A stretch of 27,230 nt of DNA from positions 1 to 27,230 of the IMG/VR virus record IMGVR_UViG_3300032093_000690; one strand, written 5' to 3'. The notes beneath the pieces were generated by a model, which worked only from the letters and a program-made list of their open reading frames with translations, searched no databases and was not told the DNA's origin. Of the stretch, positions 1,995 through 24,047 are shown in pieces; positions within the stretch are counted from its first letter, which is position 1; every line of letters starts with the position of its first letter. This stretch comes from a virus. The position numbers and the translations under genes were made by a program.

Positions 1995-1995
1995 A

Positions 1996-3081: not shown

Positions 3082-3083
3082 CG

Positions 3084-4151: not shown

Positions 4152-4771
4152 TTACTGCTCAGTTTTTTATTGAAAAATACTTATCCAAAGTTCCCGGCTG
4201 GTGTTCTAAAGACAAAGCTGAAAAGTTTGTTGAGTTGATTAATACGACAAATGCTCAGACATGTCTAGAAATAGGTGTTTTTGGTGGTTCTTCATTGTTC
4301 CCGCAAGCTTTGGCTATGAAAGACAAAGGGTCAGGTATTGTCATAGGAATTGATCCATGGACAAGGGATTCTGCCTTAGAGGACATGGTGAACAAAGCCA
4401 ATAAAGATTGGTGGGGCAGTTTAGACTTACAAAACATATATGAAATGTTTTTACAGAACATTCAGAATTATCAACTAGAGCAATTTGTTAATGTTGTTAG
4501 AAAGAAATCGTCAGAAGTTGTTGAACAGTTTGGGGAAAGTACAATTGACATTCTTCATATTGACGGAAATCATTGCGAGAGATTAGCATACGAAGATTGC
4601 GTAAACTTTTTGCCAAAAGTTAAATCTGGTGGTTATGTGTTTTTTGACGATACCACATGGGTTGAGCAGGGAAATGTAGCATCTACTCAAAAAGGTTATT
4701 CATATCTGAAGGAATATTGCGATGAAATTTGCATAGTCAGCAAAGACTGTGCTGTTCTACAGAAGCGTTAA
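4148..4771 (+). CDS. class I SAM-dependent methyltransferase (Methyltransf_24 type)
   Basis: 207 aa. SAM-binding motif I is CLEIGVFGGSS (39-49); the acidic strand-2 residue follows in VIGIDPW, and ILHIDGNHCERLAYED plus GGYVFFDDTTW match the Methyltransf_24 pattern typical of sugar or small-molecule O-methyltransferases in glycan clusters. I chose the ATG at 4148 because it makes an ATGA overlap with the glycosyltransferase stop and has GGAG upstream; ATGs at 4136 and 4142 are alternatives. It probably methylates the product of the preceding glycosyltransferase. Confidence 0.8.
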   Translation: MITAQFFIEKYLSKVPGWCSKDKAEKFVELINTTNAQTCLEIGVFGGSSLFPQALAMKDKGSGIVIGIDPWTRDSALEDMVNKANKDWWGSLDLQNIYEMFLQNIQNYQLEQFVNVVRKKSSEVVEQFGESTIDILHIDGNHCERLAYEDCVNFLPKVKSGGYVFFDDTTWVEQGNVASTQKGYSYLKEYCDEICIVSKDCAVLQKR

Positions 4772-5378: not shown

Positions 5379-5567
5379 TTATGCAAGTTGATTTGCGTCT
5401 GAATTTAACAGCAGCCCGAATGCGCTTTCTTGCTTATTCAACTTAAAATTATTAGAACAAAAACTTCCAATATTAAATGGAAAATGAAAAGATTTTTGAG
5501 ATAAAAAGCTATAATTTATTTCATGATTCCAATGAAGTGAATACGCAATCGATTGTTTGAAAATCAT
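5379..5567 (-). CDS. tiny aromatic-rich ORF A3 (array 1), 62 aa
   Basis: Begins MIFKQSIAYS, matching the Met-Ile-Phe-Lys start seen across these arrays, five bases after the stop of ORF A2. An upstream in-frame ATG at 5585 lies inside A2 and is less likely. Rich in Ser, Phe and Asn. The C-terminus lacks the usual Cys-Trp ending, as might be expected for the last member before the ordinary gene at 5352. Function unknown. Confidence 0.55.
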   Translation of the reverse strand: MIFKQSIAYSLHWNHEINYSFLSQKSFHFPFNIGSFCSNNFKLNKQESAFGLLLNSDANQLA

Positions 5568-5572
5568 TTTGT

Positions 5573-5752
5573 TTACCAAGGCCATCTATAAATGCTGCCT
5601 TGACTTCCACAAAAACTGCTGGACCAATAAACATGTACATGAAAAAGTGGAGAAAAATAGCTTTGCCTTGCAAAAATAGGGCTCATACCTCTTCCACTAA
5701 ACCAGCTAGATCGATGTGGTTTTGTACATCTACAATTAATTTTATGTATCAT
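5573..5752 (-). CDS. tiny aromatic-rich ORF A2 (array 1), 59 aa
   Basis: Starts MIHKINCRCT in an ATGA overlap with the stop of ORF A. Contains the internal IFAR motif and ends in RWPW. Five Trp, several Cys and many Ser/Arg. The start is fixed by the overlap; an in-frame ATG at 5770 would lie inside A. Member of the same family by start pattern, size and composition. Confidence 0.6.
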   Translation of the reverse strand: MIHKINCRCTKPHRSSWFSGRGMSPIFARQSYFSPLFHVHVYWSSSFCGSQGSIYRWPW

Positions 5753-5937
5753 AGGTTTTTGCTCCAGCATCTTCCTCTAAAATTGTTTAGAGAAAAAACA
5801 GTATTCATCTGTTTTGATTGTTGGAAATGTTTAGTCCAATGATATGAAAAATCCATATCTCCTACATGTGCAAAGCTGAACATAAAGCCTTGTTCAAATA
5901 AGTAAATGGATGACCATGATGTGTTTCTGAAAATCAT
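5749..5937 (-). CDS. tiny aromatic-rich ORF A (array 1), 62 aa
   Basis: Starts MIFRNTSWSS, the ATG overlapping the stop of ORF B as TGATG. It aligns visibly with B: SWSS versus SWSA, then LF, then a Phe-rich middle, then a C-terminal RCWSKNL versus RNWSDGI. The pair is one of the clearer pieces of evidence that these ORFs are homologous proteins rather than chance ORFs. Confidence 0.65.
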   Translation of the reverse strand: MIFRNTSWSSIYLFEQGFMFSFAHVGDMDFSYHWTKHFQQSKQMNTVFSLNNFRGRCWSKNL

Positions 5938-6119
5938 CAAATTCCATCACTCCAATTTCTGCTGTCGTAATTAGCTCTGCTAAAGGCGTTTGATCTTTCT
6001 CTGCTTTCTTGTGCTGGAATTTTCCAAGAAAAACTATAACTCATATCAAAAAAAGATGCAGCAACAAATCTATTGCCGAACAAATTGGTAGCAGACCAAG
6101 AAATGTATTTCAAAATCAT
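5937..6119 (-). CDS. tiny aromatic-rich ORF B (array 1), 60 aa
   Basis: Begins MILKYISWSATN about ten bases after the membrane-protein stop and ends SRNWSDGI. Contains the internal NAFSR motif shared with other members. The stop forms TGATG with the next start. Composition (Ser, Phe, Trp, Arg, Asn) differs sharply from the ordinary genes around it. Confidence 0.65.
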   Translation of the reverse strand: MILKYISWSATNLFGNRFVAASFFDMSYSFSWKIPAQESRERSNAFSRANYDSRNWSDGI

Positions 6120-8518: not shown

Positions 8519-8685
8519 TTCGCAACCTTTTTATTTTTTAGAATCTCTAATTGTTTTTGTAATTTGGCAACTATTACATCATGTCTTTTCCAATATTGCT
8601 CTTTATTTCCATAATAATAACCCTCGTCCTTCATGGACTGTAAAGCGCCTAGTAAATGACTGATTTCAGACGATGTGAGTGTCAT
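8515..8685 (-). CDS. small helical protein, 56 aa
   Basis: Starts MTLTSSEISHLLGALQSMKD. The ATG at 8685 is chosen because it makes TGATG with the stop of ORF H3 and follows GGGGGG; an ATG at 8706 is inside H3. Two amphipathic helices with a Lys-rich end and ordinary composition. It is thus an ordinary gene embedded in the array and sharing its RBS/start junction. Confidence 0.65.
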   Translation of the reverse strand: MTLTSSEISHLLGALQSMKDEGYYYGNKEQYWKRHDVIVAKLQKQLEILKNKKVAK

Positions 8686-8831
8686 CAATCCCCCCAAATT
8701 TCGCATCTAGTCTTATCTAGTACGAATGCCCCTGAGTAGTATGTTATGCCAATAAAACATGATTTTGGATACATTCTGATGAAGCTACTGAGGCCACACC
8801 AATGGCTGAAAACTTTGATGCGATTTTCCAT
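8685..8831 (-). CDS. tiny aromatic-rich ORF H3 (array 2), 48 aa
   Basis: Starts MENRIKVFSHW with TAATG overlapping the stop of H2, and ends TRCEIWGD with the stop overlapping the next start as TGATG. The end of the gene reads TAGATGC..TGGGGGGAT, a variant of the junction motif found in the other arrays, here acting as the RBS of the ordinary 56-aa gene. Confidence 0.6.
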   Translation of the reverse strand: MENRIKVFSHWCGLSSFIRMYPKSCFIGITYYSGAFVLDKTRCEIWGD

Positions 8832-9010
8832 TACCACCTTCCAAAAAGTTTGCTGTAATTCCAACAGTCATGGTTATTACCAGCAAAGACTTCTGATCTT
8901 CCCATGCCATTTATCCGACAGCTTCCCCAAGCTGTATTCAACCAAGACATTTGTGACTGTGTTGCAAACACAGTTGATCTGCCTTTCAGAAATGGAATAT
9001 TAAGAGTCAA
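8831..9010 (-). CDS. tiny aromatic-rich ORF H2 (array 2), 59 aa
   Basis: Starts at a TTG (TTGA overlap with the stop of H1) and reads MTLNIPFLKGRS, then MSWLNTAWGSCRING and HDCWNYSKLFGRW. It carries Trp, Cys and Asn-rich stretches like the other array ORFs, and its stop overlaps the next start as TAATG. Confidence 0.55.
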   Translation of the reverse strand: MTLNIPFLKGRSTVFATQSQMSWLNTAWGSCRINGMGRSEVFAGNNHDCWNYSKLFGRW

Positions 9011-9192
9011 CTCCAGAATCCAAAATTAGATTGAGTCGATCCTTTAAAAACTCTGCTTACTGTAGGTCTGGAAAATGGATTTAAAAATATTACGAAACTG
9101 TTGCTATACGCTTCATCACCTGAAAAATTACCAGAAAAATGGCAATCATTCAAATCACTCAAAACATACTTGTGAAAATTGAATATGTGCAT
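9007..9192 (-). CDS. tiny aromatic-rich ORF H1 (array 2), 61 aa
   Basis: Starts MHIFNFHKYV 16 bases after the stop of the four-repeat gene, with a weak CAGG upstream. Phe/Ser/Asn-rich, with NPFSRPTVSR as the internal motif and NFGFWS at the end, which matches NFGFYSSDWV of ORF O in array 5. First of a coupled run of array genes. Confidence 0.6.
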   Translation of the reverse strand: MHIFNFHKYVLSDLNDCHFSGNFSGDEAYSNSFVIFLNPFSRPTVSRVFKGSTQSNFGFWS

Positions 9193-10665: not shown

Positions 10666-11337
10666 ATGCTTGATGCGATTATTATCTCTGACATTCATCT
10701 AGGCTCCGATGTGTGCCAAGCAGAAGCCTTAGACAAATTCCTCAAGAAAATTGATAAACTACAGCCACAAAGACTCATAGTCAATGGCGATCTGTTCGAT
10801 TGCCTCAATTTCAACAAACTCCCAAAACACCATTGGCACATTCTCAAAGACCTCAGAAAATTATCTAAACACACAGAAGTTATCTGGATTAACGGTAATC
10901 ATGACGGACATTATGAATATGTTAGTAACCTCCTAGGACTTGAATTTTTCCAAGAATACACTTTTGAAAGTGATAATAAAAAAATAATTTGCCTGCACGG
11001 AGATAGATTCGATAGCTTTATTCAAAAGTATCCCATGTTCACCAAATGTGCCGATGCAATTTATTGGCTTATGCAAAAATTAGATAAAAGCCATTCCCTA
11101 GCCGTCTATGCCAAAAAGAACAGCAAGACATTCCTCAGAAATAGTGAAAGAATAAAGACTGAAGCGGTGAAATATGCGAAAGAAAACGGAGCAGATATTG
11201 TCCTGTGTGGTCATACTCATTTCCCAGAAACAACTTTAGTAAAAGGAATATGGTACGGCAATTCCGGTTGCTGGACTGACAAACAATGCTCCTACTTAAC
11301 CGTTTACCAAGGAGCAGTTACCCTGAATTATATATGA
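10666..11337 (+). CDS. calcineurin-like metallophosphoesterase, LpxH-like
   Basis: 223 aa with all five metallophosphoesterase blocks in order: SDIHLG (8-13), NGDLFD, NGNHD, LHGDRFD and GHTH, giving the Asp/His/Asn ligands of a two-metal site. Layout and length fit the UDP-2,3-diacylglucosamine diphosphatase (LpxH) branch, whose cellular role is lipid A synthesis, but also related phage phosphoesterases of unknown substrate. Its stop overlaps the GT4 start (ATGA), so the two probably act together on an envelope glycolipid. Family secure; substrate inferred. Confidence 0.85.
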   Translation: MLDAIIISDIHLGSDVCQAEALDKFLKKIDKLQPQRLIVNGDLFDCLNFNKLPKHHWHILKDLRKLSKHTEVIWINGNHDGHYEYVSNLLGLEFFQEYTFESDNKKIICLHGDRFDSFIQKYPMFTKCADAIYWLMQKLDKSHSLAVYAKKNSKTFLRNSERIKTEAVKYAKENGADIVLCGHTHFPETTLVKGIWYGNSGCWTDKQCSYLTVYQGAVTLNYI

Positions 11338-12335
11338 ACATACTAATAGCCACAGACGCTTGGGAACCACAAGTAAACGGCGTTGTCAAAACACTAAAAA
11401 ATACTATTCAAAAACTTGAAGAAATGGGACATATAGTAAAATTAATAACACCATCGGATTACTGGTGCTTCAAAGTTCCATTCACAAAAGATATACTTAC
11501 TCCATATTGGGTCAGAACCAAAACAATCAAAGATAAAATTGAATGGGCTGATTATATCCATATAAGCACAGAAGGAACTATAGGACTAGCCGTAAGAAAA
11601 TATTGCATCAAAAAGGGTTACCAATTCACCACAGCTTATCACACAGATATTCCCAACTTCTTCTATAAAACATTTGGTTTTGGCCTAAGATTATCCAAGA
11701 AATATCTAAGATGGTTTCATAACAAATCAGCCTGTGTCATGGCTACTACCGAACAGAATATACTTATTTTGAAGTCTTATGGGTTTACTGCACCAATAAA
11801 AATTTGGAGCAGAGGTGTCGATACTGATCTGTTTGTTCCTGTTGCAAAAGAAAAGTCAGATAGGATTCGTCTGGTCTATTGCGGCAGAGTTAGTCCAGAA
11901 AAAGGACTTAATGACTTCGTTCAACTGGATAACCTTTATGAAAAGACAATCATAGGCGATGGAATCTGTTTGGATTCTTATCAGTTTATTCATCCAGAGA
12001 TTAGATTCACAGGATTCTTACATGGCAAGGAATTAGCAAATGAATTGGCTTCCCATGACATTTTTGTATTCCCAAGTAAATTTGATACATTTGGACTGGT
12101 TAATATTGAAGCCATGAGTTGTGGGCTACCAGTAGCTTGTTATGATTGCAAAGGTGCTGGTGAAATAGTATCTGGTGGTAAAAGAATAGGATATGCTTCT
12201 CATGATTTGAATTTCGCTATTAAAGAATGCCATGATCTTATTTATAACAATAATTGCAGAGAACATGTTTTAAAAAATTACACTTGGAATAACGCTACTT
12301 CTCAATTCTTTGGAAATTTAGTTAGGAAAATATGA
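11334..12335 (+). CDS. GT4-family (GT-B) glycosyltransferase, MgtA-like
   Basis: 333 aa. The N-terminal domain opens MNILIATDAWEPQVNGVV, typical of GT4 lipid mannosyl/glucosyl-transferases; the C-terminal domain has LVYCGRVSPEKGLNDF and SKFDTFGLVNIEAMSCGLPV. The latter is the nucleotide-sugar site in its MgtA-type form (DTFG..EA). The ATG at 11334 makes an ATGA overlap with the phosphoesterase; an ATG at 11286 would lie inside that gene. Probably transfers a hexose to a lipid or glycan acceptor. Its own stop overlaps the EF-hand gene. Confidence 0.85.
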   Translation: MNILIATDAWEPQVNGVVKTLKNTIQKLEEMGHIVKLITPSDYWCFKVPFTKDILTPYWVRTKTIKDKIEWADYIHISTEGTIGLAVRKYCIKKGYQFTTAYHTDIPNFFYKTFGFGLRLSKKYLRWFHNKSACVMATTEQNILILKSYGFTAPIKIWSRGVDTDLFVPVAKEKSDRIRLVYCGRVSPEKGLNDFVQLDNLYEKTIIGDGICLDSYQFIHPEIRFTGFLHGKELANELASHDIFVFPSKFDTFGLVNIEAMSCGLPVACYDCKGAGEIVSGGKRIGYASHDLNFAIKECHDLIYNNNCREHVLKNYTWNNATSQFFGNLVRKI

Positions 12336-13569: not shown

Positions 13570-13686
13570 TCAAATCCCAATTGTATAAAAGGCTGCAAAG
13601 AAATCGTTGCTGTACTTCCAATACAGGAAAGCCAAAGTTCCAGCCACAATGATTGCTGCAATAATCAATTTATTTTTTGTTTTCAT
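13570..13686 (-). CDS. single-pass small membrane protein, 38 aa
   Basis: MKTKN, then a hydrophobic run (LIIAAIIVAGTLAFLYW, residues 7-23), then a short tail. Coupled by ATGA to ORF M3; the GGGGGAA that codes for the end of M3 is its RBS. Last gene of array 3. Small membrane proteins also sit in or next to arrays 4 and 5. Confidence 0.6.
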   Translation of the reverse strand: MKTKNKLIIAAIIVAGTLAFLYWKYSNDFFAAFYTIGI

Positions 13687-13856
13687 ATACTTCCCCCAAA
13701 ATTATAACTGCAAGTAAAGTTGGAATTAAAAACCTGAGTGCGCCAACCTCTAGCTGTCCATTCTATATAGAGTGTCCTATTTTGCATCCAGTTATAACTC
13801 CTGTAATGACTAAAACGCCAAACTTCTACCATGCTGGGATTTGGAGATCGGAACAT
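13683..13856 (-). CDS. tiny aromatic-rich ORF M3 (array 3), 57 aa
   Basis: Starts MFRSPNPSMVEVWRFSHYRS with TGATG over the stop of M2 and ends CSYNFGGSI with ATGA into the membrane gene. Four Trp and many Arg/Tyr/Asn. Confidence 0.62.
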   Translation of the reverse strand: MFRSPNPSMVEVWRFSHYRSYNWMQNRTLYIEWTARGWRTQVFNSNFTCSYNFGGSI

Positions 13857-14008
13857 CAAAATTTTCTCTCAACAAAATTAAATGAATAAGCTAATCCAAC
13901 TGTAAAAGTCATACTGTATGAAATGCCTCTAAACATATCAGAATTGCTTCTAAAATGCTTCCAAATTAAAATATGACTAGGGGCAGTTTGTTTGTGGAAG
14001 GTTCTCAT
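13856..14008 (-). CDS. tiny aromatic-rich ORF M2 (array 3), 50 aa
   Basis: Starts MRTFHKQTAPSHILIW in an ATGA overlap with ORF M and stops in a TGATG overlap with M3. Phe/Ser/Arg-rich, including WKHFRSN and the C-terminal AYSFNFVERKF. Both start and stop are fixed by the couplings. Confidence 0.6.
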   Translation of the reverse strand: MRTFHKQTAPSHILIWKHFRSNSDMFRGISYSMTFTVGLAYSFNFVERKF

Positions 14009-14172
14009 ATGTTGTGTTCCCAGCATCTGCTTTTATAGTCTGGTGATACAAACAACCACGAAATACTTGTTTTATAAACAAGAGCTTCACCCCAATGTCT
14101 GCTGTAGCCTAGTGTATAAAATTTTGAATACTGACGATCTGTATTCCATGAATTGCTGGATGGGTGGGTCAT
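14005..14172 (-). CDS. tiny aromatic-rich ORF M (array 3), 55 aa
   Basis: Starts MTHPSSNSWNTD in an ATGA overlap with ORF N (an ATG at 14190 lies within N). Contains LGYSRHWGEA and ends KSRCWEHNI, the typical SRCW ending. Its stop forms ATGA with M2. Confidence 0.65.
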   Translation of the reverse strand: MTHPSSNSWNTDRQYSKFYTLGYSRHWGEALVYKTSISWLFVSPDYKSRCWEHNI

Positions 14173-14351
14173 CCTCTGAAACCCCAACAAATAGAATTGA
14201 AATATAAATCCCTTGCTCTGTTATGCCAATGCCTAGACCTCCCGCATCCATTCAAATAGGCTAAAGAGCTTTGATATATAAATCTAGAAAATGGGCTTGA
14301 TGTACCGAACAGAGTTATTTTCATGCCTTCGACTGTGTGGACTGAAATCAT
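14169..14351 (-). CDS. tiny aromatic-rich ORF N (array 3), 60 aa
   Basis: The ATG at 14351 (MISVHTVEGMK) follows GGGGGATTGAG, the RBS-like end of the preceding 113-aa gene, one base after that gene's stop. Contains SPFSRF and GRSRHWHNRARD, and ends NSICWGFRG. Its stop is in an ATGA overlap with M. Confidence 0.63.
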   Translation of the reverse strand: MISVHTVEGMKITLFGTSSPFSRFIYQSSLAYLNGCGRSRHWHNRARDLYFNSICWGFRG

Positions 14352-14352
14352 C

Positions 14353-14694
14353 TCAATCCCCCTTATGCCCACCCACCAAAATTACAACCCAATACGACTT
14401 TTTCTCCGATTCAATTTCCCTATTATATGCTTTAGCTCTTGTTACGAAATGCTCAAGATGTGGTTCTAAACTTTCTGTTAGTCTGAAACTGAAAGGCTTG
14501 CCAGACTTGAGTATAATTTCAAATAAACCAGCATAAAATCCAAATTGGAAATCTGTATCAGTAGATTTGTTGCCCCATTTGAATATATCTGCAAATTCCC
14601 AAAAGGGTGATCCAGTATCAAAAAATTCTCCACTAGGAACTGGTTCAAAACTGTCATCATTAGTGGGCAAGAGATCGTCTAAGGGTATCATCAT
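14353..14694 (-). CDS. hypothetical acidic protein embedded in array 3, 113 aa
   Basis: Ordinary composition, acidic N-terminal half (MMIPLDDLLPTNDDSFEPVP) and a helical second half ending KKSYWVVILVGGHKGD. The start overlaps the stop of ORF N0 (ATGA) and the stop lies one base before ORF N. It sits inside the array like the 190-aa gene of array 4. No motif recognised. Confidence 0.68.
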   Translation of the reverse strand: MMIPLDDLLPTNDDSFEPVPSGEFFDTGSPFWEFADIFKWGNKSTDTDFQFGFYAGLFEIILKSGKPFSFRLTESLEPHLEHFVTRAKAYNREIESEKKSYWVVILVGGHKGD

Positions 14695-14852
14695 TCAATC
14701 TCCGAAACATAATACGGCAAAGTGTCCCACGCTGACATGGTTCTCAACCCCACAAAATTCCAACTGTTATGAATTCCCCAGCTTAAAAAGGAAGTTTTAT
14801 AATCCCGATCCCAACCCCGACTTCTAGCACAATAGCTTATTTTGAAAATCAT
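14691..14852 (-). CDS. tiny aromatic-rich ORF N0 (array 3), 53 aa
   Basis: Starts MIFKISYCARSRGWDRDYK just after the terminator of the upstream operon and contains SFLSWGIHNSWNF and MSAWD. Stop in ATGA overlap with the 113-aa gene. First gene of its operon; only a weak GGAT precedes the ATG, and no promoter was recognised in the 14-base gap to the terminator. Confidence 0.62.
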   Translation of the reverse strand: MIFKISYCARSRGWDRDYKTSFLSWGIHNSWNFVGLRTMSAWDTLPYYVSEIE

Positions 14853-14865
14853 AAAACAATATCCA

Positions 14866-14899
14866 AAAAGAAAAAGCGCACAAGTTTTAGCCTGTGCGC
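14866..14899 (-). terminator. rho-independent terminator
   Basis: On the minus strand GCGCACAGG, a 6-base loop and CTTGTGCGC (one G-T pair) are followed by TTTTTCTTTTT. It ends the operon that runs from array 4 through the 113-aa gene at 14927-15268 and separates it from array 3. The plus-strand side lacks a clear T-run, so it acts mainly one way. Confidence 0.88.
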
Positions 14900-14926
14900 C
14901 TTAATATATCAAGTTTTATTGGAAAG

Positions 14927-15268
14927 TCAAGCGTTATTTTGCTGAGAATCCCACAATGCAACAACGCCAATTGCTGCATTCAAAGCAGCATTAACAACCT
15001 CTTCAGGAACATCTCTATGGCGAATATGTTTGATTTTTTCATCAACATCGGGAAGTACTGCGCCTACTTGCAAATCTGCCTTATTATCCCTGAATGAAAG
15101 ATATAACTTGTATCCATACTTCGCACTTTCACCATTAGGGCTGGCTGCTAGCACAACACCACCATATGGATCAGTATAAGCGCAAACTTCACTTGTCCAC
15201 ATTCCTTTGTATTTCTTTCCTTCAGAATCTTCCGTAATTCCTAAATGCTTAATATTTTCTTCAGACAT
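14927..15268 (-). CDS. hypothetical protein, 113 aa
   Basis: Starts MSEENIKHLGITEDSEGKKY with AAAGGAG six bases upstream; an ORF extension to 15331 has no RBS. Beta-rich middle (VVLAASPNGESAKYGYKLYL) and a helical end (VPEEVVNAALNAAIGVVAL). Ordinary composition, soluble. Last gene before the terminator; it has its own strong RBS instead of the coupling used by the array upstream. No function recognised. Confidence 0.75.
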   Translation of the reverse strand: MSEENIKHLGITEDSEGKKYKGMWTSEVCAYTDPYGGVVLAASPNGESAKYGYKLYLSFRDNKADLQVGAVLPDVDEKIKHIRHRDVPEEVVNAALNAAIGVVALWDSQQNNA

Positions 15269-15315: not shown

Positions 15316-15501
15316 TTATTCCCCAGTCCAATTGTGTTTTCTTTCCAATTCTTCAATTCTATTCGCTAAAGAATGAAAGGTGTCAACAACAATATCTTGC
15401 ATTCTGCCATGATGTTCTTTATGAATTTTAAACATTTGCCAAGTGAACCAAGCGTTCAGTATGAGTGAGGCGATAAAAAGTCCTATAATTATAGGGAGCA
15501 T
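15316..15501 (-). CDS. small membrane-anchored coiled protein, 61 aa
   Basis: Residues 2-20 (LPIIIGLFIASLILNAWFTW) form one membrane helix, followed by a charged helix (IEELERKHNW). The ATG at 15501 makes TGATG with the stop of array ORF L, with GAGGCGG as RBS; an upstream ATG at 15537 lies in L. Layout resembles phage spanin- or holin-like small proteins, but no lysis gene is nearby. Confidence 0.68.
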   Translation of the reverse strand: MLPIIIGLFIASLILNAWFTWQMFKIHKEHHGRMQDIVVDTFHSLANRIEELERKHNWTGE

Positions 15502-15704
15502 CACCGCCTCACATTGAATCTGTTGAAAGTAAAACAATGTTCCCTACCGCCAAAACCCAATCCATGAGCAATACTGATCCAGAAGCTTTTGCGAACATAT
15601 TGCCCATATGATGAAAGTCCAAACAAACCTGTCATGTTATAACGAAATAACCCAAATGGGCTACAGTCCATATAGAATACTGCTTGTGGTTTAGGAAATT
15701 TCAT
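15501..15704 (-). CDS. tiny aromatic-rich ORF L (array 4), 67 aa
   Basis: Starts MKFPKPQAVFYMDCSPFG in an ATGA overlap with the short ORF L', and ends FTFNRFNVRR with TGATG into the membrane gene. Gly/Phe/Arg-rich; SYGQYVRKSFW aligns loosely with the KYGSALCF stretch of ORF I. Confidence 0.62.
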   Translation of the reverse strand: MKFPKPQAVFYMDCSPFGLFRYNMTGLFGLSSYGQYVRKSFWISIAHGLGFGGREHCFTFNRFNVRR

Positions 15705-15759
15705 ATCCTATTCCCCCAGCACCTGCTATTTTGGCTCATAGTCCAGTATCTGCCTTCAG
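15701..15759. repeat. direct repeat, copy 1 (flanks the 190-aa gene)
   Basis: About 59 bases, matching 16352-16410 with three mismatches by my count. It covers the shared end of ORFs L' and C plus the junction to the next start. The two copies are 651 bases apart. Confidence 0.85.
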
Positions 15760-15796
15760 AAAAACCGGAGGAAAAGAAATCGTCAGCTCCAATCAT
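15701..15796 (-). CDS. tiny ORF L' (array 4), shortened copy of ORF C, 31 aa
   Basis: Starts MIGADDFFSSGFSEG inside the end of the 190-aa gene and ends GRYWTMSQNSRCWGNRI, identical in protein to the end of ORF C. Four of the DNA differences from C in this stretch are silent in this frame (GAC/GAT, TTT/TTC, AGT/AGC, AGA/AGG), which supports translation in this frame. It looks like a family member that lost its middle. Confidence 0.55.
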   Translation of the reverse strand: MIGADDFFSSGFSEGRYWTMSQNSRCWGNRI

Positions 15797-16355
15797 AATC
15801 ATCATCATCATCTTCTTCTTCATAAATGGGGCCACAAAAGAATTCATTATCGAAATGCCGACAATCCTGAAATGGGAGTCCCCATACTATTCCACCGGGC
15901 CAGCCACCAAAGTTTTCATTCCATGTTATCTTCCAATAATGACCTCTAAAATAAGCAAAATCATGCCAGTTTTTATTTGTAGCCCAAGATTCATGAAAAA
16001 TCGTAGAAGAGGTTGAAAACAACCTAATTCTTTCTCCCCAAGGATTTTCATGCCCACTTTCAACAAGCATCCTCAATGTTGGATTTTCATGCGGAGAATT
16101 TTTTATTTTATAAATATCAAATATTACAGACCAATCCTCGCAAACATAAAAAAGTTCAATTTCATCATATCCACCTATATGTGGACTGAATCCAGCAGGT
16201 ATATCATATAAGCTTTTTCTTGGATAAGAAAGTTCTATGTCCAACCTTAGATGTTTATCTAAAGGTTGAACTGGATATTTTTCAAAATTATTTAAACGAA
16301 TATTTATCCATTCATCATAGCTAATTTCAGAAATTCCATTGCATTTAAGTATCAT
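15783..16355 (-). CDS. hypothetical protein in array 4, 190 aa, acidic tail
   Basis: Starts MILKCNGISEISYDEW, i.e. with the Met-Ile-Leu-Lys start of the tiny ORFs, in an ATGA overlap with ORF C. The second half is Trp/Phe-rich (SWATNKNWHDFAYFRGHYW, FGGWPGGIVWGL), resembling the SWSATN stretch of array 1, and the protein ends EEEDDDDDYDWS. It could be a long relative of the tiny family or a cassette placed in the array. Flanked by 59-base direct repeats. No known domain recognised. Confidence 0.7.
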   Translation of the reverse strand: MILKCNGISEISYDEWINIRLNNFEKYPVQPLDKHLRLDIELSYPRKSLYDIPAGFSPHIGGYDEIELFYVCEDWSVIFDIYKIKNSPHENPTLRMLVESGHENPWGERIRLFSTSSTIFHESWATNKNWHDFAYFRGHYWKITWNENFGGWPGGIVWGLPFQDCRHFDNEFFCGPIYEEEDDDDDYDWS

Positions 16356-16410
16356 ATCCTATTCCCCCAGCATCTACTATTTTGGCTCATAGTCCAGTAT
16401 CTGCCTTGAG
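16352..16410. repeat. direct repeat, copy 2 (end of ORF C)
   Basis: Partner of 15701-15759. Recombination between the two would remove exactly 651 bases (the 190-aa gene plus L') and join C directly to L with the ATGA junction intact. Confidence 0.85.
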
Positions 16411-16549
16411 AAAAAGTATAGGAAAAAAAGTCATAATGTTTGAATGTACTGAGAGAAAGCTCGACAAGAGTAGTGCCCCATGAAGTAGATGAGTTATGCC
16501 CTCTGCTGAACAGGCGCATGGAGGATAGGCTGTGGATGCGAAATATCAT
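16352..16549 (-). CDS. tiny aromatic-rich ORF C (array 4), 65 aa
   Basis: Starts MIFRIHSLSSMRLFSRG in an ATGA overlap with ORF D, with AAGGAG five bases upstream. Ends GRYWTMSQNSRCWGNRI; the bases for CWGNR (TGCTGGGGGAATAGG) precede the next ATG and can act as its RBS. Clear family member with both conserved ends and the internal LFSRG motif. Confidence 0.68.
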   Translation of the reverse strand: MIFRIHSLSSMRLFSRGHNSSTSWGTTLVELSLSTFKHYDFFSYTFSQGRYWTMSQNSRCWGNRI

Positions 16550-16716
16550 CTCCTTATCTCAATCCCTCTAGACAAAAAGAACACCTCATAGTCCACATGA
16601 TAGTAGATATTTCTAGTGAAGCAACTGCAATAAAATTTTCTTTGGAAAAAAGACCTAGATCTGCTATCCGACCAGCAATGTGCTAAATCTGTTGTTTTAT
16701 ACGATGGAATGAACAT
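16546..16716 (-). CDS. tiny aromatic-rich ORF D (array 4), 56 aa
   Basis: Starts MFIPSYKTTDLAHCW with TAATG over the stop of E. Ser/Arg/Phe/Tyr-rich (SDSRSRSFFQRKFYCSCFTR), ends SRGIEIRR; the end codons AGG AGA supply the RBS for ORF C. Stop in ATGA overlap. Confidence 0.62.
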   Translation of the reverse strand: MFIPSYKTTDLAHCWSDSRSRSFFQRKFYCSCFTRNIYYHVDYEVFFLSRGIEIRR

Positions 16717-16907
16717 TAAATTTTGCCTTTCCAGCATTCACTACGGTTGCTTACAGCACTCTGAATAAATCCAAATGCTTGACAGTAATCCCATTCCCTA
16801 CGACCAATCCAACTTGTCGGAAAATTAAATGGGAATATTTTGGAGCCAATAAATGATTCGTCCCAGAAGGGTTCGCAGTAGTTCCAGCTATGGATGCGCT
16901 GGATCAT
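16716..16907 (-). CDS. tiny aromatic-rich ORF E (array 4), 63 aa
   Basis: Starts MIQRIHSWNYCEPFW in an ATGA overlap with ORF F; five Trp residues. GRREWDYCQAFGF aligns with FRPNEYCCLAFGS of ORF P in array 5, one of the few internal matches between arrays. Ends SECWKGKI; stop in TAATG overlap with D. Confidence 0.66.
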   Translation of the reverse strand: MIQRIHSWNYCEPFWDESFIGSKIFPFNFPTSWIGRREWDYCQAFGFIQSAVSNRSECWKGKI

Positions 16908-17071
16908 ATATCCCTATTCCAATTAAAAGAAAAAGTTGAACAGCGGTGAAAGCACTTGGATTGCTGCTTTCTAGCTACACACTCTGACCAGCAAAGATTC
17001 CAGTTTAAAGAAAACCAATAAATGCCATTAAAAGATTCGACTCTAGAACGACTGACATTTTTGAGGTTCAT
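16904..17071 (-). CDS. tiny aromatic-rich ORF F (array 4), 55 aa
   Basis: Starts MNLKNVSRSRVESF with AAGGAG eight bases upstream; the frame is open further upstream to 17254, but those starts lie inside F'. The 46-base gap to the F' stop is the longest inside the array. Contains WNLCWSEC and ends SFNWNRDI; stop in ATGA overlap with E. Confidence 0.6.
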   Translation of the reverse strand: MNLKNVSRSRVESFNGIYWFSLNWNLCWSECVARKQQSKCFHRCSTFSFNWNRDI

Positions 17072-17117
17072 CTGAATAGCTCCTTGAATAGCTTTTTGCC
17101 TTAAAAACAAGCGAAAT

Positions 17118-17297
17118 TCAAAAAATCCAATAGTTTTGTGAATAGCCTTGTGAATACCCATAACTCCATATTGCCTTGACACCAAATGCCCTGCGCTTTG
17201 ACAATGTACTATATTTTGTGCCAATAAAGCAATAGCTTGTATCGCTGGCATCATTCCAGCACCAACATTCTTTGTAGGAGTTAATCAGATGGATCAT
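17118..17297 (-). CDS. tiny aromatic-rich ORF F' (array 4), 59 aa
   Basis: Starts MIHLINSYKECWCW in an ATGA overlap with ORF G. Trp, Cys and Tyr-rich, with AFGVKAIWSYGYSQGYSQ and the end NYWIF. An ATG at 17351 lies in G and is rejected. Confidence 0.62.
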   Translation of the reverse strand: MIHLINSYKECWCWNDASDTSYCFIGTKYSTLSKRRAFGVKAIWSYGYSQGYSQNYWIF

Positions 17298-17500
17298 ATC
17301 CCGCTCCCCCAGCAACTCGACCAAAATCCATAGCGCAATTTCGATCTGCATTGCCTTTCAAATATCACACTCCAAAAACCCATGCTTCTGCCTACTGTAT
17401 TCCTCAGAGTGCAATATTGGAAGCGTGGAAAGCAATGGCTAATGCTGTTATCGCCACTCCAGCATCCATTGTTTGAAATAGTGTTAATTCGGATAATCAA
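17294..17500 (-). CDS. tiny aromatic-rich ORF G (array 4), 68 aa
   Basis: Starts at a TTG (MIIRINTISNNGCW) in a TTGA overlap with ORF H and with AGGAG just upstream, which fixes this unusual start. Ends FWSSCWGSGI over the G-rich junction motif; stop in ATGA overlap with F'. Confidence 0.64.
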   Translation of the reverse strand: MIIRINTISNNGCWSGDNSISHCFPRFQYCTLRNTVGRSMGFWSVIFERQCRSKLRYGFWSSCWGSGI

Positions 17501-17637
17501 AGGCTCCTCACTCGCTCTCTGCTGAACATATAACTATAATATCCACCGTTTAAACGACTGCTTACAACATCATAAAAAATGAATTGATAATTGCCTTCTG
17601 ACCAACATTTGCTGCTTCTCATACGGCAGAACATCAT
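17497..17637 (-). CDS. tiny aromatic-rich ORF H (array 4), 46 aa
   Basis: Starts MMFCRMRSSKCWSEG with TAGGAG nine bases upstream, 11 bases after the stop of ORF I. Contains NYQFIFYDVVSSR and ends YMFSRERVRSL. The ATG at 17685 lies inside I and is rejected. Confidence 0.6.
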   Translation of the reverse strand: MMFCRMRSSKCWSEGNYQFIFYDVVSSRLNGGYYSYMFSRERVRSL

Positions 17638-17648
17638 TGGAAAGTCTC

Positions 17649-17855
17649 CTAAATTTGTGTCCTTAAAGCAAATGGTCTTCCGCATGTCATCTGTCCATCG
17701 TGAAATGCATTAGACATAAATGAATTTCCTTCAAAACAAAGTGCTGACCCATATTTTCCATGAAAAGAAACTGAAGTTCCAAAAGAATCAAACAGATAAG
17801 AAAATCTTCGTAGATGTAATGTATTCATGCCATTACAGTTTCTAGTGAATATCAT
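17649..17855 (-). CDS. tiny aromatic-rich ORF I (array 4), 68 aa
   Basis: Starts MIFTRNCNGMNTLHLRRFSY one base after the stop of J (TAGCATG), behind GGGGGTGGAGAG. Contains FSYLFDSFG, KYGSALCFEGN and TCGRPFALRTQI. A more Gly/Asn-rich middle than its neighbours. Confidence 0.63.
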   Translation of the reverse strand: MIFTRNCNGMNTLHLRRFSYLFDSFGTSVSFHGKYGSALCFEGNSFMSNAFHDGQMTCGRPFALRTQI

Positions 17856-17856
17856 G

Positions 17857-18045
17857 CTAATCTCTCCACCCCCAGCACTTACTGTAGTACGACCATCTGC
17901 TTGTTAATTGGGAGGTCTTACTCAACAATATGGAATACCGATCCCTTTTGCCCACAAAATTATCTCCCCATATTACGCCTCTGGTGCCATGATGCGACCA
18001 GATTTGCCAATGAAATGATCTGGAACTGCCGAACTTATAGAACAT
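17857..18045 (-). CDS. tiny aromatic-rich ORF J (array 4), 62 aa
   Basis: Starts MFYKFGSSRSFHWQIW with TAATG over the stop of K, behind TGGGGGA. Ends YYSKCWGWRD over a GCTGGGGGTGGAGA junction. Trp/Ser/Arg-rich. Confidence 0.64.
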   Translation of the reverse strand: MFYKFGSSRSFHWQIWSHHGTRGVIWGDNFVGKRDRYSILLSKTSQLTSRWSYYSKCWGWRD

Positions 18046-18239
18046 TAGTCTATCCCCCACAAAAAAGAATCATTCTTTTGGGAGCAAGTTATATTTTTAG
18101 ACCAACAATGGGAAAATGACAATGCTGCTCTGGCTGTCATAGCTCTAGTGTCACATAGACACCAATTATTTCTCCAATTGTGACTGCCAGAATATATTTG
18201 GCTGAAGATGGCGCAGTCATGCCCGTTGATGAAAAGCAT
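18045..18239 (-). CDS. tiny aromatic-rich ORF K (array 4, first), 64 aa
   Basis: Starts MLFINGHDCAIFSQI with AAGGC upstream, downstream of an AT-rich divergent spacer; it heads the longest array operon. Contains NWRNNWCLCDTRAM, LSFSHCWSKN and the end FLWGID. Stop in TAATG overlap with J. Confidence 0.62.
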   Translation of the reverse strand: MLFINGHDCAIFSQIYSGSHNWRNNWCLCDTRAMTARAALSFSHCWSKNITCSQKNDSFLWGID

Positions 18240-18344
18240 CTTGCCTTCTTTTTTTATTTTTTATGATAAATTTTCATTATATAATCAAAGTTCGAAAATA
18301 CAATAAAATTTTGCCATAGTAGTTGGTATGTCGTAAGGAATAAT

Positions 18345-18989
18345 ATGAATGAAATAAACCAAAAAATATATGAAAATTTAGAGTTGTGGCCTGAAGATAC
18401 AGATGGCTGGGGAGGAAATGATTCTATTTTTGAAGAAATGATATCTATGTCTTTGCCTTCAGTTGTAGTAGAAATAGGTTCTTGGAAAGGCCAATCAACT
18501 ATTAACATGGGCAAAATTTTAAAAAAACTAGGATTGAAACATACCAAGATATATGCCATTGACACATGGTTAGGAGCGACAGAATTTTGGACAACACACA
18601 AGGATACTCCAGAAAGAAATCTCCATCTTAAAAATGGTTATCCTCAAATATATTATCAGTTCTTGAGTAATGTTGTTCACAATAATTTACAAGATACGAT
18701 TATTCCAATAACAAATACATCAATTACAGGCTTAAAAATATTGAAACACCATGCGATAAAGCCAGAGCTTGTTTACATAGATGCATCTCATGAAGAGGAA
18801 GATGTTTACGCAGACTTGAAGTACTCATTTGATATGGTAGAAAAAGGAATTGTTTTTGGTCATGATTATGATTGGTGTGCAGGTGTAAAAAGTGCCGTAG
18901 ACAGATTTGCAAATGAGAACAGACTAAGGCTTGAATCTAAAGCAGCTTTTTGGTTTATAAAAAAGTTGAAATATCCACAAAAAAAATAA
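18345..18989 (+). CDS. class I SAM-dependent methyltransferase (Methyltransf_24 type)
   Basis: 214 aa. SAM motif VVEIGSWKGQS (41-51), strand 2 YAIDTWLGA and the later LVYIDASHEEEDVYADL and FGHDYDW match the same Methyltransf_24 group as the gene at 4148, but the two are divergent. TAAGGA is the RBS. It stands alone between two minus operons, separated from array 4 by an AT-rich divergent spacer. Members of this group methylate sugars or small metabolites; the target here is unknown. Confidence 0.82.
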   Translation: MNEINQKIYENLELWPEDTDGWGGNDSIFEEMISMSLPSVVVEIGSWKGQSTINMGKILKKLGLKHTKIYAIDTWLGATEFWTTHKDTPERNLHLKNGYPQIYYQFLSNVVHNNLQDTIIPITNTSITGLKILKHHAIKPELVYIDASHEEEDVYADLKYSFDMVEKGIVFGHDYDWCAGVKSAVDRFANENRLRLESKAAFWFIKKLKYPQKK

Positions 18990-19026: not shown

Positions 19027-19191
19027 TTATTTCTGGAGAGCATTTTTATGTTTCCTTTTCTCTCTATACTGTCTAATTTTGTCTTGATTATTTGCTTCCC
19101 ATATTTTTCTTTGTTCACGAAGTTTTTCTTTATTCTTAATTCGCCATGCTAACCTTGCTTCTTCTCTTCTGATTCTACTTTTATATGGCAT
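19027..19191 (-). CDS. small very basic helical protein, 54 aa
   Basis: Starts MPYKSRIRREEARLAWRIKN with TAATG over the preceding stop and GGAG upstream. Almost entirely Lys/Arg/Glu helix (KEKLREQRKIW). Could bind nucleic acid, from charge only. Last gene of the long minus operon; the AT-rich spacer after it has no convincing terminator. Confidence 0.65.
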   Translation of the reverse strand: MPYKSRIRREEARLAWRIKNKEKLREQRKIWEANNQDKIRQYREKRKHKNALQK

Positions 19192-19307
19192 TACTTCTCC
19201 CTTCTTTTAATTTTTCCACAACTAATGTCACAACACAAGAAATAAAGCTGTGACATAACAAATGTCACAGCTACACCTGTCCAAAATCCATCCCAATAAC
19301 TAGACAT
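19191..19307 (-). CDS. small single-pass membrane protein, 38 aa
   Basis: Reads MSSYWDGFWTGVAVTFVMSQ with a hydrophobic segment to about residue 25, then Cys residues and a KIKRREK tail. Its ATG lies eight bases inside the preceding gene's end and its stop makes TAATG with the next start. It contains an 11-bp perfect hairpin. Supported mainly by the couplings. Confidence 0.5.
   Translation of the reverse strand: MSSYWDGFWTGVAVTFVMSQLYFLCCDISCGKIKRREK
19246..19272. promoter_or_regulatory. perfect 11-bp hairpin (AGCTGTGACAT)
   Basis: AGCTGTGACAT, five-base loop, ATGTCACAGCT; a third ATGTCACA lies at 19224-19231. On the minus strand it is followed by TTTATTTCTT, so it could be a leaky terminator, an RNA processing site or an operator. 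It lies inside the predicted 38-aa gene. Confidence 0.5.
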
Positions 19308-19458
19308 TACGGTCACTCACAGGATTGCATGCAATACTATTAAATATATTTTTCATTTCTGTTGTCATAGAATCATACCCTAAATTAGATAGATGCCGGT
19401 TTGAATGCAGGTGTTTTATAATGTCTTCCATAATTTTTTCTTCTAATGACTTGTCCAT
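19300..19458 (-). CDS. small helical protein, 52 aa
   Basis: GGAG seven bases before the ATG. Starts MDKSLEEKIMEDIIKHLHSN; acidic helical first half, then NLGYDSMTTEMKNIF. Ordinary composition and no motif recognised. It overlaps the next gene by eight bases. Confidence 0.65.
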   Translation of the reverse strand: MDKSLEEKIMEDIIKHLHSNRHLSNLGYDSMTTEMKNIFNSIACNPVSDRNV

Positions 19459-19500
19459 GTTCTACTCCAAATGCGAAAAAAACTATGAATCCAATTCGAA

Positions 19501-19692
19501 TTAAAGGTCGGAAGGCTTGCCAATTCCAGAAAAGTTGCTCATTCTTTTTGCAACTTCCGTAGCAATTGCATATTGGGGATGAGATTGTTCTTTTGTTTGG
19601 CAGGTGCCACAAATATAGTCTGAATTAAATTTGCTCATACAGCAGTCAGACATAGATTGACGACAACGGTCACATTTCGTTGGATACGGCAT
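19501..19692 (-). CDS. small zinc-ribbon protein, 63 aa
   Basis: Two CxxC knuckles (C7-D-R-C10 and C28-G-T-C31) plus C17-C18 form a likely treble-clef or zinc-ribbon site. AAGGAG six bases before the ATG at 19692; an ATG at 19773 would start inside array ORF O. The C-terminus (ATEVAKRMSNFSG) is helical. Such proteins often bind nucleic acids or partner proteins; no specific role can be named. Confidence 0.75.
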   Translation of the reverse strand: MPYPTKCDRCRQSMSDCCMSKFNSDYICGTCQTKEQSHPQYAIATEVAKRMSNFSGIGKPSDL

Positions 19693-19744
19693 AGAAACTC
19701 CTTTTAAAAAACACTTAGGCATAATACTATAAAAAATTACTGAA

Positions 19745-19930
19745 TCAAACCCAATCGCTGGAATAAAATCCAAAATTTTTAGATTGTTGAAGTCGTAGAT
19801 TAGTATTTCTGGCTGAAAAACTTTTCCAAAGATATGAATACGGCATAAAATGATGGAAGAAACAAGCTATATTGGAACTTGCTTTTTGATGCAATATCCA
19901 GCAGCATGATTCTGCATGTAACAACCTCAT
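19745..19930 (-). CDS. tiny aromatic-rich ORF O (array 5), 61 aa
   Basis: Starts MRLLHAESCCWILHQK in an ATGA overlap with ORF P. Contains YSYLWKSFSARNTN and ends FGFYSSDWV, the same SDWV ending as P. The bases for this ending (GCGATTGGGT.TGA) are the array-5 form of the junction motif. Last of its array. Confidence 0.62.
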   Translation of the reverse strand: MRLLHAESCCWILHQKASSNIACFFHHFMPYSYLWKSFSARNTNLRLQQSKNFGFYSSDWV

Positions 19931-20157
19931 ACCCAATCGCTCCAACTGTGCTGTTCTTCAAATGAAAATTCTTTCCATACTGTAGATTCGCAAGCACCAA
20001 ACACTTCACTCCAAGCTTGCCCTGTATTTCTACTAACTCTATTGAATCTACTTCCAAAAGCCAAACAACAATATTCATTAGGTCTGAATGTCACACCGAA
20101 TCTTTGATTTCGGGCGAATACAGAATAAGTGTGTCTGCATGTGTAATTGAAAATCAC
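19927..20157 (-). CDS. aromatic-rich ORF P (array 5), 76 aa
   Basis: Starts at a GTG (MIFNYTCRHTYSVFAR) in a GTGA overlap with ORF Q, with GGAG upstream; this restores the Met-Ile-Phe start. An ATG at 20184 lies inside Q. FRPNEYCCLAFGSRF aligns with ORF E; ends EQHSWSDWV. The longest of the tiny family members. Confidence 0.64.
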   Translation of the reverse strand: MIFNYTCRHTYSVFARNQRFGVTFRPNEYCCLAFGSRFNRVSRNTGQAWSEVFGACESTVWKEFSFEEQHSWSDWV

Positions 20158-20339
20158 GGGCTTCTCCACAACATATTGAAGCAATGACTGTCATAAATAA
20201 ACGGATGACTGAATAATTGGCTTTGAGTTCTGCCGTCAAAGCTAAGTGCTCTATAAAGTTCACTATTATTTATGTCTTTGAATGAGCAAGCGTTACCTGC
20301 TGAAAAAACATCACAATTAAAATTTAAAACCTTTAACAT
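20154..20339 (-). CDS. tiny aromatic-rich ORF Q (array 5), 61 aa
   Basis: Starts MLKVLNFNCDVFSAGN inside the last 23 bases of the 108-aa gene. Contains ELYRALSFDGRTQSQLF and ends NMLWRSP. Stop in GTGA overlap with P. The deeper upstream overlap makes the exact start less sure. Confidence 0.58.
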   Translation of the reverse strand: MLKVLNFNCDVFSAGNACSFKDINNSELYRALSFDGRTQSQLFSHPFIYDSHCFNMLWRSP

Positions 20340-20643
20340 GACTTTCGTTGAAAACCTTTGATTCAGTTATGCCTGAAGGCCACCATGATCTCGGTTCGGT
20401 TGTCCAGTTCAAACTTCTTTTGACTCTTTTATCACCATACTTTGACCAATAGTAAAGTATAGTGGATCGATCAGCGTTTGGAAACCTTTCTCTTTGTCTC
20501 CATGGTGATGAATACAGAGAAGTAATAAAAACATAACTTTTGTGACTTAGATCAACAGTTCTTTTTTGTTCATTCCAACTTGTATTTAATACTGGAGGCT
20601 TGTTAGTTGTAAAACCATATACTGAAAATGGAATTTCTGACAT
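20317..20643 (-). CDS. Trp-rich protein, possible long array-family member, 108 aa
   Basis: Starts MSEIPFSVYGFTTNKPP with TGATG over the stop of the 27-aa membrane peptide. Eight or so Trp (SWNEQ, SSPWRQRERF, YYWSKYG, NWTTEPRSWWPSG). KSYVFITSLY..W and PRSWW align loosely with EYCCLAFGS..W and HSWSD of ORF P. No known domain recognised. Confidence 0.65.
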   Translation of the reverse strand: MSEIPFSVYGFTTNKPPVLNTSWNEQKRTVDLSHKSYVFITSLYSSPWRQRERFPNADRSTILYYWSKYGDKRVKRSLNWTTEPRSWWPSGITESKVFNESHVKGFKF

Positions 20644-20726
20644 CACTCTCTCACTTTCTCTGCAACTATATATATCATACCCACTAGTACAGATACAGCG
20701 ACGAGAAAAGAAAGAGTATTAATCAT
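20643..20726 (-). CDS. membrane peptide, 27 aa
   Basis: AGGAG six bases before the ATG. MINTL, a hydrophobic run (SFLVAVSVLVGMIYIVA), then EKVRE; stop in TGATG overlap with the 108-aa gene. Very short, but RBS and coupling are both good. Confidence 0.5.
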   Translation of the reverse strand: MINTLSFLVAVSVLVGMIYIVAEKVRE

Positions 20727-20735
20727 GGTGATCTC

Positions 20736-20933
20736 CTAAATGTTGCCAGACCAATGTCCCCAGCTGCTATTTAAATTGAACTCATCTCCCCAAGTAAAAT
20801 GTCTGCTGAAAAAGTATTTGTTAGAAAAACACTCTGATTCTAATATAAAATCTCTTTCTGTCCAACAATCAGACCGATTCCAATTATTTTGGAATTGGCA
20901 AACATCACTTCGTTGGCCAACTTTAAACAACAT
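20736..20933 (-). CDS. tiny aromatic-rich ORF R (array 5), 65 aa
   Basis: Starts MLFKVGQRSDVCQF; a TTG at 20939 in a TTGA overlap with ORF S is an equally good start. Contains NNWNRSDCWTERD and YFFSRHFTWGDE, and ends SSWGHWSGNI. The stop codon TAG is part of the AGGAG RBS of the 27-aa peptide. Confidence 0.62.
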   Translation of the reverse strand: MLFKVGQRSDVCQFQNNWNRSDCWTERDFILESECFSNKYFFSRHFTWGDEFNLNSSWGHWSGNI

Positions 20934-20935
20934 TT

Positions 20936-21118
20936 TCAATTTCCAAAAGCAAAAGAACGAGAATTAAACTGTGAGAATAGGACGCTGCCAGTTCTTTCAA
21001 AAAAAGCTATTGAAAAACTACTATGGAATTTAAAACCATATGAGTATTTATATCTTGCTAACCGTGTGCCAGAATATCTTCTTTCAAATCTGAATGATTT
21101 GCTTTCTGGGAAGAACAT
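20936..21118 (-). CDS. tiny aromatic-rich ORF S (array 5), 60 aa
   Basis: Starts MFFPESKSFRFERRYSG within the last 60 bases of the upstream Cys-rich gene, in another frame. Phe/Ser/Arg-rich, with AFFERTGSVLFSQFNSRSFA. The long overlap is unlike the other junctions; either the upstream gene really ends inside S or one frame has been broken. Confidence 0.5.
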   Translation of the reverse strand: MFFPESKSFRFERRYSGTRLARYKYSYGFKFHSSFSIAFFERTGSVLFSQFNSRSFAFGN

Positions 21119-23801: not shown

Positions 23802-24047
23802 TCAGGGGGTTACGATGAATACACCACCTGCACCATTTGAAATGTCGGTGAGTGTTTGGAAACCATCGTTGAAAGTTGCGCCGTCATTGAGTTCCCAAAC
23901 CATGCGTTGTTGTAGGTCAGAAGTATTTACAACTTCGATATAACCTGTGCGCTGAGCGGAAACACCGTTGCTGACGCTTGTGTCTAGTGAGCCCTCTGTT
24001 CCTAGGTTGACTAGGCTAGGGGTCAATTTTAGTAAATAATTAGCCAT
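23802..24047 (-). CDS. small virion-type protein, free form of the RCC1 C-terminal domain, 81 aa
   Basis: Starts MANYLLKLTPSLVNLGTEGS with AAGGAG upstream. It aligns along its length with the last 78 residues of the RCC1 protein: KLTP, N-x-GTEG, QRTGYIE versus QRSGYIE, DGAT, LTDI versus LTDL, and a terminal FIV. The same domain alone and fused to a propeller suggests an attachment or oligomerisation domain of a fibre or decoration protein. Single-gene unit with a CATAAATA element (24092-24099) about 44 bases upstream. Role inferred. Confidence 0.75.
   Translation of the reverse strand: MANYLLKLTPSLVNLGTEGSLDTSVSNGVSAQRTGYIEVVNTSDLQQRMVWELNDGATFNDGFQTLTDISNGAGGVFIVTP

What the first reader, a model, noticed from the sequence alone, without database searches (positions are those of the whole stretch)
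13683..14852. Array 3: five more coupled tiny ORFs, some missed by usual length cut-offs
N0, N, M, M2 and M3 (50-60 aa), plus a 113-aa protein and a 38-aa membrane protein, are linked by ATGA/TGATG junctions and one 1-base gap. M2 (14008-13856) and M3 (13856-13683) were found only by following each stop to the next overlapping ATG, and each again gave a full-length frame ending on a new overlap. That predictive success supports the chain model.
Basis: seen in the sequence. Interest (0 to 1): 0.85.

Follow-up and report, generated by a model that had tools for sequence, protein, structure and literature searches.

The report
Coupled arrays of tiny phage genes
A large, contractile-tailed bacterial virus carries trains of tiny genes, each ending where the next begins; they encode real but very diverse, mostly related small proteins with no known relatives, in a stretch of the genome that gains, loses and swaps genes quickly.

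Summary
Between 14852 and 13570 (- strand) seven ORFs of 53, 113, 60, 55, 50, 57 and 38 aa follow each other with 4-nt or 1-nt stop/start overlaps and a single 1-nt gap. In 2000 shuffles of this 1.3 kb the longest chain was 2. Following the junction opens another ORF of at least 40 aa in 55% of cases on this strand, 2% in shuffles and 0% on the other strand; a related virus gives 42% against 2%. The chain model holds.

The window belongs to a large-phage lineage. Several tiny genes from neighbouring arrays, and the 113-aa gene here, have orthologues in other viruses with dN/dS 0.06-0.32, so they encode selected proteins. Many are homologous to each other beyond composition, forming a divergent W/C/S/R/F-rich family absent from Pfam, PHROGs and the PDB. 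The five tiny genes of array 3 lack close orthologues, so their own selection was not measured. Junction DNA serves as upstream C-terminus, ribosome-binding region and next start codon.

The nearest known thing is the S-PM2 "ORFanage": same architecture, unrelated proteins. Best reading: an accessory, probably host-takeover, region of coupled mini-genes growing by duplication and recombination. Function is inferred only.

The parts
14903..14930 (-). promoter-like site TTGACT-16-TATATT with TG before the -10, directly upstream of the terminator
   Evidence: such sites are no more frequent than in shuffles (67 vs 67.0), so this is only a lead
14873..14902 (-). intrinsic-terminator-like hairpin (12 pairs, T-run) between the upstream 134-aa gene and the array head
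   Evidence: 13 terminator-like sites found in the stretch, 10.2 expected; sequence
14691..14852 (-). N0, 53 aa, array head
   Evidence: family jackknife 0 of 200 shuffles as good (narrow margin)
14353..14694 (-). 113-aa protein, ATGA overlap with N0; orthologues in L025 (60%) and L030 (52%)
   Evidence: dN/dS about 0.20; AF2 pLDDT 66.7, C-terminal half about 80, no significant fold match
14169..14351 (-). N, 60 aa, 1-nt gap after the 113-aa gene; ends ...CWGFRG
   Evidence: weakest family support (25 of 200 shuffles as good)
14005..14172 (-). M, 55 aa, 4-nt overlap; ends ...SRCWEHNI
   Evidence: blastp to window 5749-5937 (E 1e-4) and L025:4884 (E 7e-4)
13856..14008 (-). M2, 50 aa, 4-nt overlap (alternative upstream ATG at 14026)
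   Evidence: 4 of 200 shuffles as good
13683..13856 (-). M3, 57 aa, TGATG overlap
   Evidence: blastp to L025:7083 (E 4e-5); 18 of 200 shuffles as good in the profile test
13570..13686 (-). 38-aa protein with one hydrophobic stretch (likely membrane), 4-nt overlap with M3
15501..18239 (-). neighbouring array of the same kind (chains 18239-17649, 17071-16352, 15704-15316)
   Evidence: orthologues in L025, dN/dS well below 1
15696..16432 (-). 86-nt direct repeat (87% identical: 15696-15781 and 16347-16432) spanning a junction and flanking the 190-aa gene 15783-16355
5379..6119 (-). array of four family-like ORFs; two (5749-5937, 5573-5752) have orthologues in L024 and L025
8342..9192 (-). array; members 9007-9192, 8831-9010 and 8685-8831 have orthologues in L024
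   Evidence: dN/dS 0.10 for 8685-8831
19191..21118 (-). array; 20317-20643, 20154-20339 and 19927-20157 have orthologues in L033; 336 bp of it absent from contig L034

Best explanation
This is part of a roughly 16-kb accessory region (window about 5.4-21 kb) of a large contractile-tailed phage lineage, built from trains of real, co-directional mini-genes. Shown: the genes are chained by stop/start overlaps far beyond chance; those with orthologues are under purifying selection in the chain frame; many belong to one highly divergent family of about 50-75 aa proteins rich in Trp, Cys, Ser, Arg and Phe with a typical ending [C/N/H]W[G/S]x[N/K/R]I-stop; the DNA of that ending also holds the G-rich sequence and the ATGA that starts the next gene; junction-spanning direct repeats, an allele swap and a 336-bp deletion between sister contigs show turnover. 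Inferred: ribosomes pass from one mini-gene to the next by termination-reinitiation, so one transcript yields a set of small proteins; because each gene brings the start site of its neighbour, duplicated or inserted genes stay expressed, which favours growth by tandem duplication and recombination at junctions. Inferred with less confidence: the products are early, host-facing accessory proteins (takeover, counter-defence or inhibitor-type peptides) diversified by selection.
For: Chain statistics in the window and a sister virus. Chain frame open and conserved, other frames stopped, in nearly all orthologue pairs. Orthologue dN/dS 0.08-0.32 where dS is finite and 0.06/0.22 for two members within a near-identical population. 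Family homology beyond composition: 27 of 65 members beat all 200 shuffles with relatives left out; an A1 profile found L024:5067-5255 at 1e-12. N0 - 113-aa gene - array order kept in L025 with the same ATGA junction between the first two. Junction anatomy: 25 of 65 ends ATGA, 13 TAATG/TGATG; SD-like 4-mers upstream of 25 starts against 10.1 expected. Junction repeats; allele block 17884-18417 differing while the next 3.8 kb is identical; 336-bp deletion. Major head and baseplate genes in the relative. -4 and -1 spacings are the commonest and most efficient for coupling (PMC12548453).
Against: No close orthologue for N0, N, M, M2 or M3, so selection on them is untested. About 40% of the 65 members have neither an ATGA nor a TAATG/TGATG end. 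Some members (for example 15501-15704, 5573-5752) show no profile-level kinship. No expression, translation or phenotype data; AF2 of the family is uninformative (pLDDT 48.5). Anti-defence function rests on analogy and location only; PADLOC, Pfam and PHROGs give nothing convincing.
Confidence: 0.72

Rival explanations
1. An ordinary phage ORFan region: unrelated small genes closely packed, overlapping only because phage genomes are dense; no special family or modular junction.
For: S-PM2's ORFanage has the same packing with unrelated proteins; genome-wide continuation rates in G1 and G2 are also above shuffle (4-13% against 1.3-1.6%).
Against: Array continuation (42-55%) is several times the genome-wide rate; 27 of 65 members are significantly homologous beyond composition; C-terminal motif and start signal coincide.
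Confidence: 0.17
2. Remnants of a larger gene read out of frame: the composition looks like the -1 frame of normal genes because these are decayed or frameshifted copies.
For: Amino-acid composition of the tiny proteins is closest to the virus's own large genes read in the -1 frame (KL 0.048 against 0.160 for the true frame).
Against: The chain frame is the constrained one (dN/dS); the alternative frames hold many stops (196 and 368 in 65 members); no parent gene found in G1, G2, L025, L030 or L033 and no Pfam match for the shifted translations.
Confidence: 0.05
3. The stretch matters as DNA or RNA (repeats for recombination, a structured transcript) and the ORFs are incidental.
For: Junction-spanning direct repeats; a structured leader upstream of one array head in two relatives.
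Against: Synonymous changes greatly exceed replacements in all orthologue pairs measured; the structured leader lies outside the ORFs.
Confidence: 0.03

Closest known systems
ORFanage region of Synechococcus phage S-PM2 (ORFs 017-050), PMC4503421, PMC2984593
   Same: Contiguous run of co-directional small ORFan genes, many 48-70 aa with 4-nt overlaps, in a large T4-type myovirus; gene order rarely conserved; deletable.
   Different: Proteins are not related to this family (A6 profile best E 0.79) and are acidic (E 9.7%, D 8.5%) instead of W/C/S/R/F-rich.
Hyperplastic regions of T4-like phages and PeSL promoter-terminator cassettes (Arbiol 2010, Comeau 2014; cited in PMC4503421)
   Same: Variable small-gene regions thought to aid host adaptation; a promoter-like site next to a terminator-like hairpin lies before array 3 and a structured leader precedes one array in two relatives.
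   Different: Here most gene borders have no hairpin; the exchange units suggested by repeats are the coding junctions themselves. The two PeSL papers could not be read here.
Translational coupling by termination-reinitiation at -4/-1 spacings (PMC12548453)
   Same: Same ATGA and TAATG/TGATG spacings, which are the commonest and most efficient.
   Different: Known examples are mostly gene pairs or operons of unlike genes; here long trains are made largely of divergent copies of one small family.

Membership tests
Phage ORFanage / hyperplastic region | contiguous co-directional small genes without database relatives | tested here: met
   no Pfam, PHROG, PDB or phage tblastn match for the tiny proteins
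Phage ORFanage / hyperplastic region | located in a large T4-type (myovirus) genome | tested here: inconclusive
   relative G2 has a major head protein (phrog_138) and baseplate wedge (phrog_219), but the polymerase is DnaE-like, unlike T4
Phage ORFanage / hyperplastic region | gene content variable between close relatives | tested here: met
   allele block, 336-bp deletion, orthologues scattered over different orders in L024, L025, L033
S-PM2 ORFanage protein families | sequence homology to S-PM2 ORFanage proteins | tested here: not met
PeSL cassette | early promoter followed by stem-loop, repeated between modules | tested here: inconclusive
   one promoter-like site and terminator-like hairpin at 14930-14873; neither class exceeds shuffles clearly in the region; not repeated between modules
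Translational coupling | stop/start overlap or very short spacing | tested here: met
Translational coupling | translation of the downstream gene depends on the upstream one | not testable with these tools
   needs reporter or ribosome-profiling experiment
Anti-defence / anti-CRISPR operon | inhibits a host defence system | not testable with these tools
   no homology evidence

The most novel reading that the evidence does not exclude
A self-extending mini-gene cassette: one family, possibly born by overprinting a normal gene in its -1 frame, whose conserved C-terminus is also the ribosome-binding and start signal of the next copy, so that every duplication is automatically expressed. The phage would thus carry a continuously diversifying library of small proteins.
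Probability: 0.2. Interest if true: 0.78.

Novelty: new variant of a known kind. Interest (0 to 1): 0.52.

Why it matters
Phage genomes are full of tiny ORFans of unknown origin. Here many of them can be shown to be selected, mutually related and organised so that the end of one gene provides the start of the next. If coupling is confirmed, this gives a concrete route by which phages make and keep new small proteins, and a simple rule (follow the junction) to find genes that databases lack.

Tried and rejected
Pfam, PHROGs, PADLOC and PDB sequence searches of tiny proteins: nothing convincing. tblastn of 28 concatenated tiny proteins against 50,697 phage records, E up to 10: none. AF2 of the family with a 34-row alignment: pLDDT 48.5, not used. 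AF2 of the 113-aa protein: C-terminal alpha-beta part moderately confident, no fold match with E <= 0.001 in PDB or BFVD. 595-kb phage LR756511, the best polymerase match: no family member found. Search for a parent gene of the -1 frame: none. Rfam on the window and on the leaders in relatives: nothing above gathering score. Bacterial genomes for the 113-aa protein: none. S-PM2 ORFanage as homologue: rejected.

Full report
What was checked. The seven ORFs of the chain 14852-13570 are present at the stated coordinates, with junctions ATGA, 1-nt gap, ATGA, ATGA, TGATG, ATGA. In the related contig L025 the numbers are 17 of 41 against 1.8%, and 0 of 13 on the other strand. The longest chain in array 3 is 7; in 2000 shuffles it never exceeded 2. 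Whole-window chain counts point the same way.

Where it lies. The window is an IMG/VR virus record of 27,230 bp. It is identical over 12 kb with one locus of a 145-kb contig, and other loci of that contig match the rest. More distant relatives are a 181-kb contig (L003, L013-L021, L024; called G2), a 26.7-kb contig (L025), a 10.4-kb contig (L033) and, for the 113-aa gene only, an 87-kb contig (L030). The 145-kb contig has a DnaE-like polymerase in separate pieces, nearest at 40% to a 595-kb uncultured phage; the 181-kb contig has a major head protein and a baseplate wedge protein. It is therefore a large contractile-tailed phage lineage; the host is unknown.

The ORFs are genes. Orthologues of tiny array genes were read in three frames: the chain frame is open from start to stop and conserved, and the other frames contain stops in nearly all cases. 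Nei-Gojobori dN/dS is 0.08-0.32 for the pairs with finite dS; in four pairs dS was saturated. The 113-aa gene of this array has 0.20. A near-identical contig (L032) carries a divergent allele over 17884-18417, in which two array genes show dN/dS 0.22 and 0.06. For N0, N, M, M2 and M3 no close orthologue was found, so this test is missing for them.

They are largely one family. A profile built from 22 window proteins found L024:5067-5255 at 1e-12. A leave-out test on 65 proteins from four viruses, with all blastp-detectable relatives removed from the training set, put 27 above all 200 composition-matched shuffles; most of the rest were above the bulk of their shuffles, a few were not. Typical features are MI.[KR] at the start, S/W/C/R/F-rich middle, and [CNH]W[GS].[NKR]I at the end. 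Array 3: N0 0/200, M 1/200, M2 4/200, M3 18/200, N 25/200; M and M3 have blastp paralogues. One extra member sits alone at 26963-27190 of the 145-kb contig (E 1.4e-4).

Junction anatomy. 25 of 65 members end in ATGA and 13 in TAATG/TGATG. The usual ending, for example TGC TGG GGG AAT AGG ATA TGA, gives CWGNRI, a G-rich stretch 8-14 nt before the next start and the start codon itself. SD-like 4-mers stand upstream of 25 starts against 10.1 expected. According to a 2025 review the -4 and -1 spacings are the commonest and coupling is most efficient between -4 and +3 (PMC12548453). That coupling really occurs here is inferred.

Turnover. An 86-nt direct repeat (87%) spanning a junction flanks the 190-aa gene 15783-16355, and L025 has a 61-nt repeat (85%) spanning a junction and flanking one array gene. 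Contig L034 lacks 19309-19644 (336 bp, in frame) but is otherwise identical. The order N0-like gene, 113-aa gene, array is kept in L025 with the same ATGA at the first junction, while the following array differs. The 113-aa gene also occurs in L030 without any array. These facts fit growth by duplication and recombination at junctions; the mechanism is inference.

Composition. The proteins are rich in W (3.1x), C, S, R and F relative to the virus's large genes, and their composition is nearest to those genes read in the -1 frame (KL 0.048 against 0.160). No parent gene was found, so overprinting is only a possible origin.

Comparison with what is known. The S-PM2 ORFanage has the same architecture; its 33 ORFans could be lost in culture with faster plaque growth (PMC4503421). 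Its proteins are unrelated and acidic. PeSL cassettes of T4-type phages were considered; before array 3 there is a promoter-like site next to a terminator-like hairpin, but neither is statistically strong and no hairpin separates the modules. The case is filed as a new variant of a known kind: an ORFanage-type region built mainly from one new divergent family with dual-use junctions. Function as host-takeover or counter-defence proteins is the most likely guess (about 0.4), by analogy with phage accessory regions, and is not shown.

Noticed in passing
L024:4950-5056 and L025:9880-9990: A conserved, strongly folded leader (GGAATCC..GGGAAACC..TCCGAG, then a long hairpin; shuffle z -5.4 and -7.1) lies directly before the array head in two relatives, not in the window; no Rfam match, only two contigs in IMG/VR hold the core pattern.
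   Followed up: partly
window 19309-19644: Contig L034 lacks exactly 336 bp here and is otherwise identical; short AGACAT repeats lie near the ends and the chain frame is kept.
   Followed up: partly
window 17884-18417: In contig L032 this block is a divergent allele of two array genes, while the following 3.8 kb has no difference: a likely recombination event.
   Followed up: yes
window 6780-8099: 439-aa RCC1-repeat protein whose C-terminal part resembles the small protein 23802-24047 and the end of a 762-aa protein in the 181-kb contig (L013:5489-7777); perhaps a shared surface or attachment module.
   Followed up: no
145-kb contig G1: 31884-33605, 129557-132133, 135026-136366: DnaE-type DNA polymerase occurs as separate pieces, with an additional overlapping copy of one part.
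   Followed up: no
window 19800-20078 and L033:10001-10162: An overlapping second frame inside the array gene 19927-20157 is open and similar in both viruses (79% over 52 aa), a possible overlapping gene, or merely the shadow of 87% conservation in the main frame.
   Followed up: partly
window 964-4771 and 10666-12335: Glycan-type genes: glycosyltransferases, a GH130-like protein, methyltransferases and a calcineurin-like phosphoesterase.
   Followed up: no
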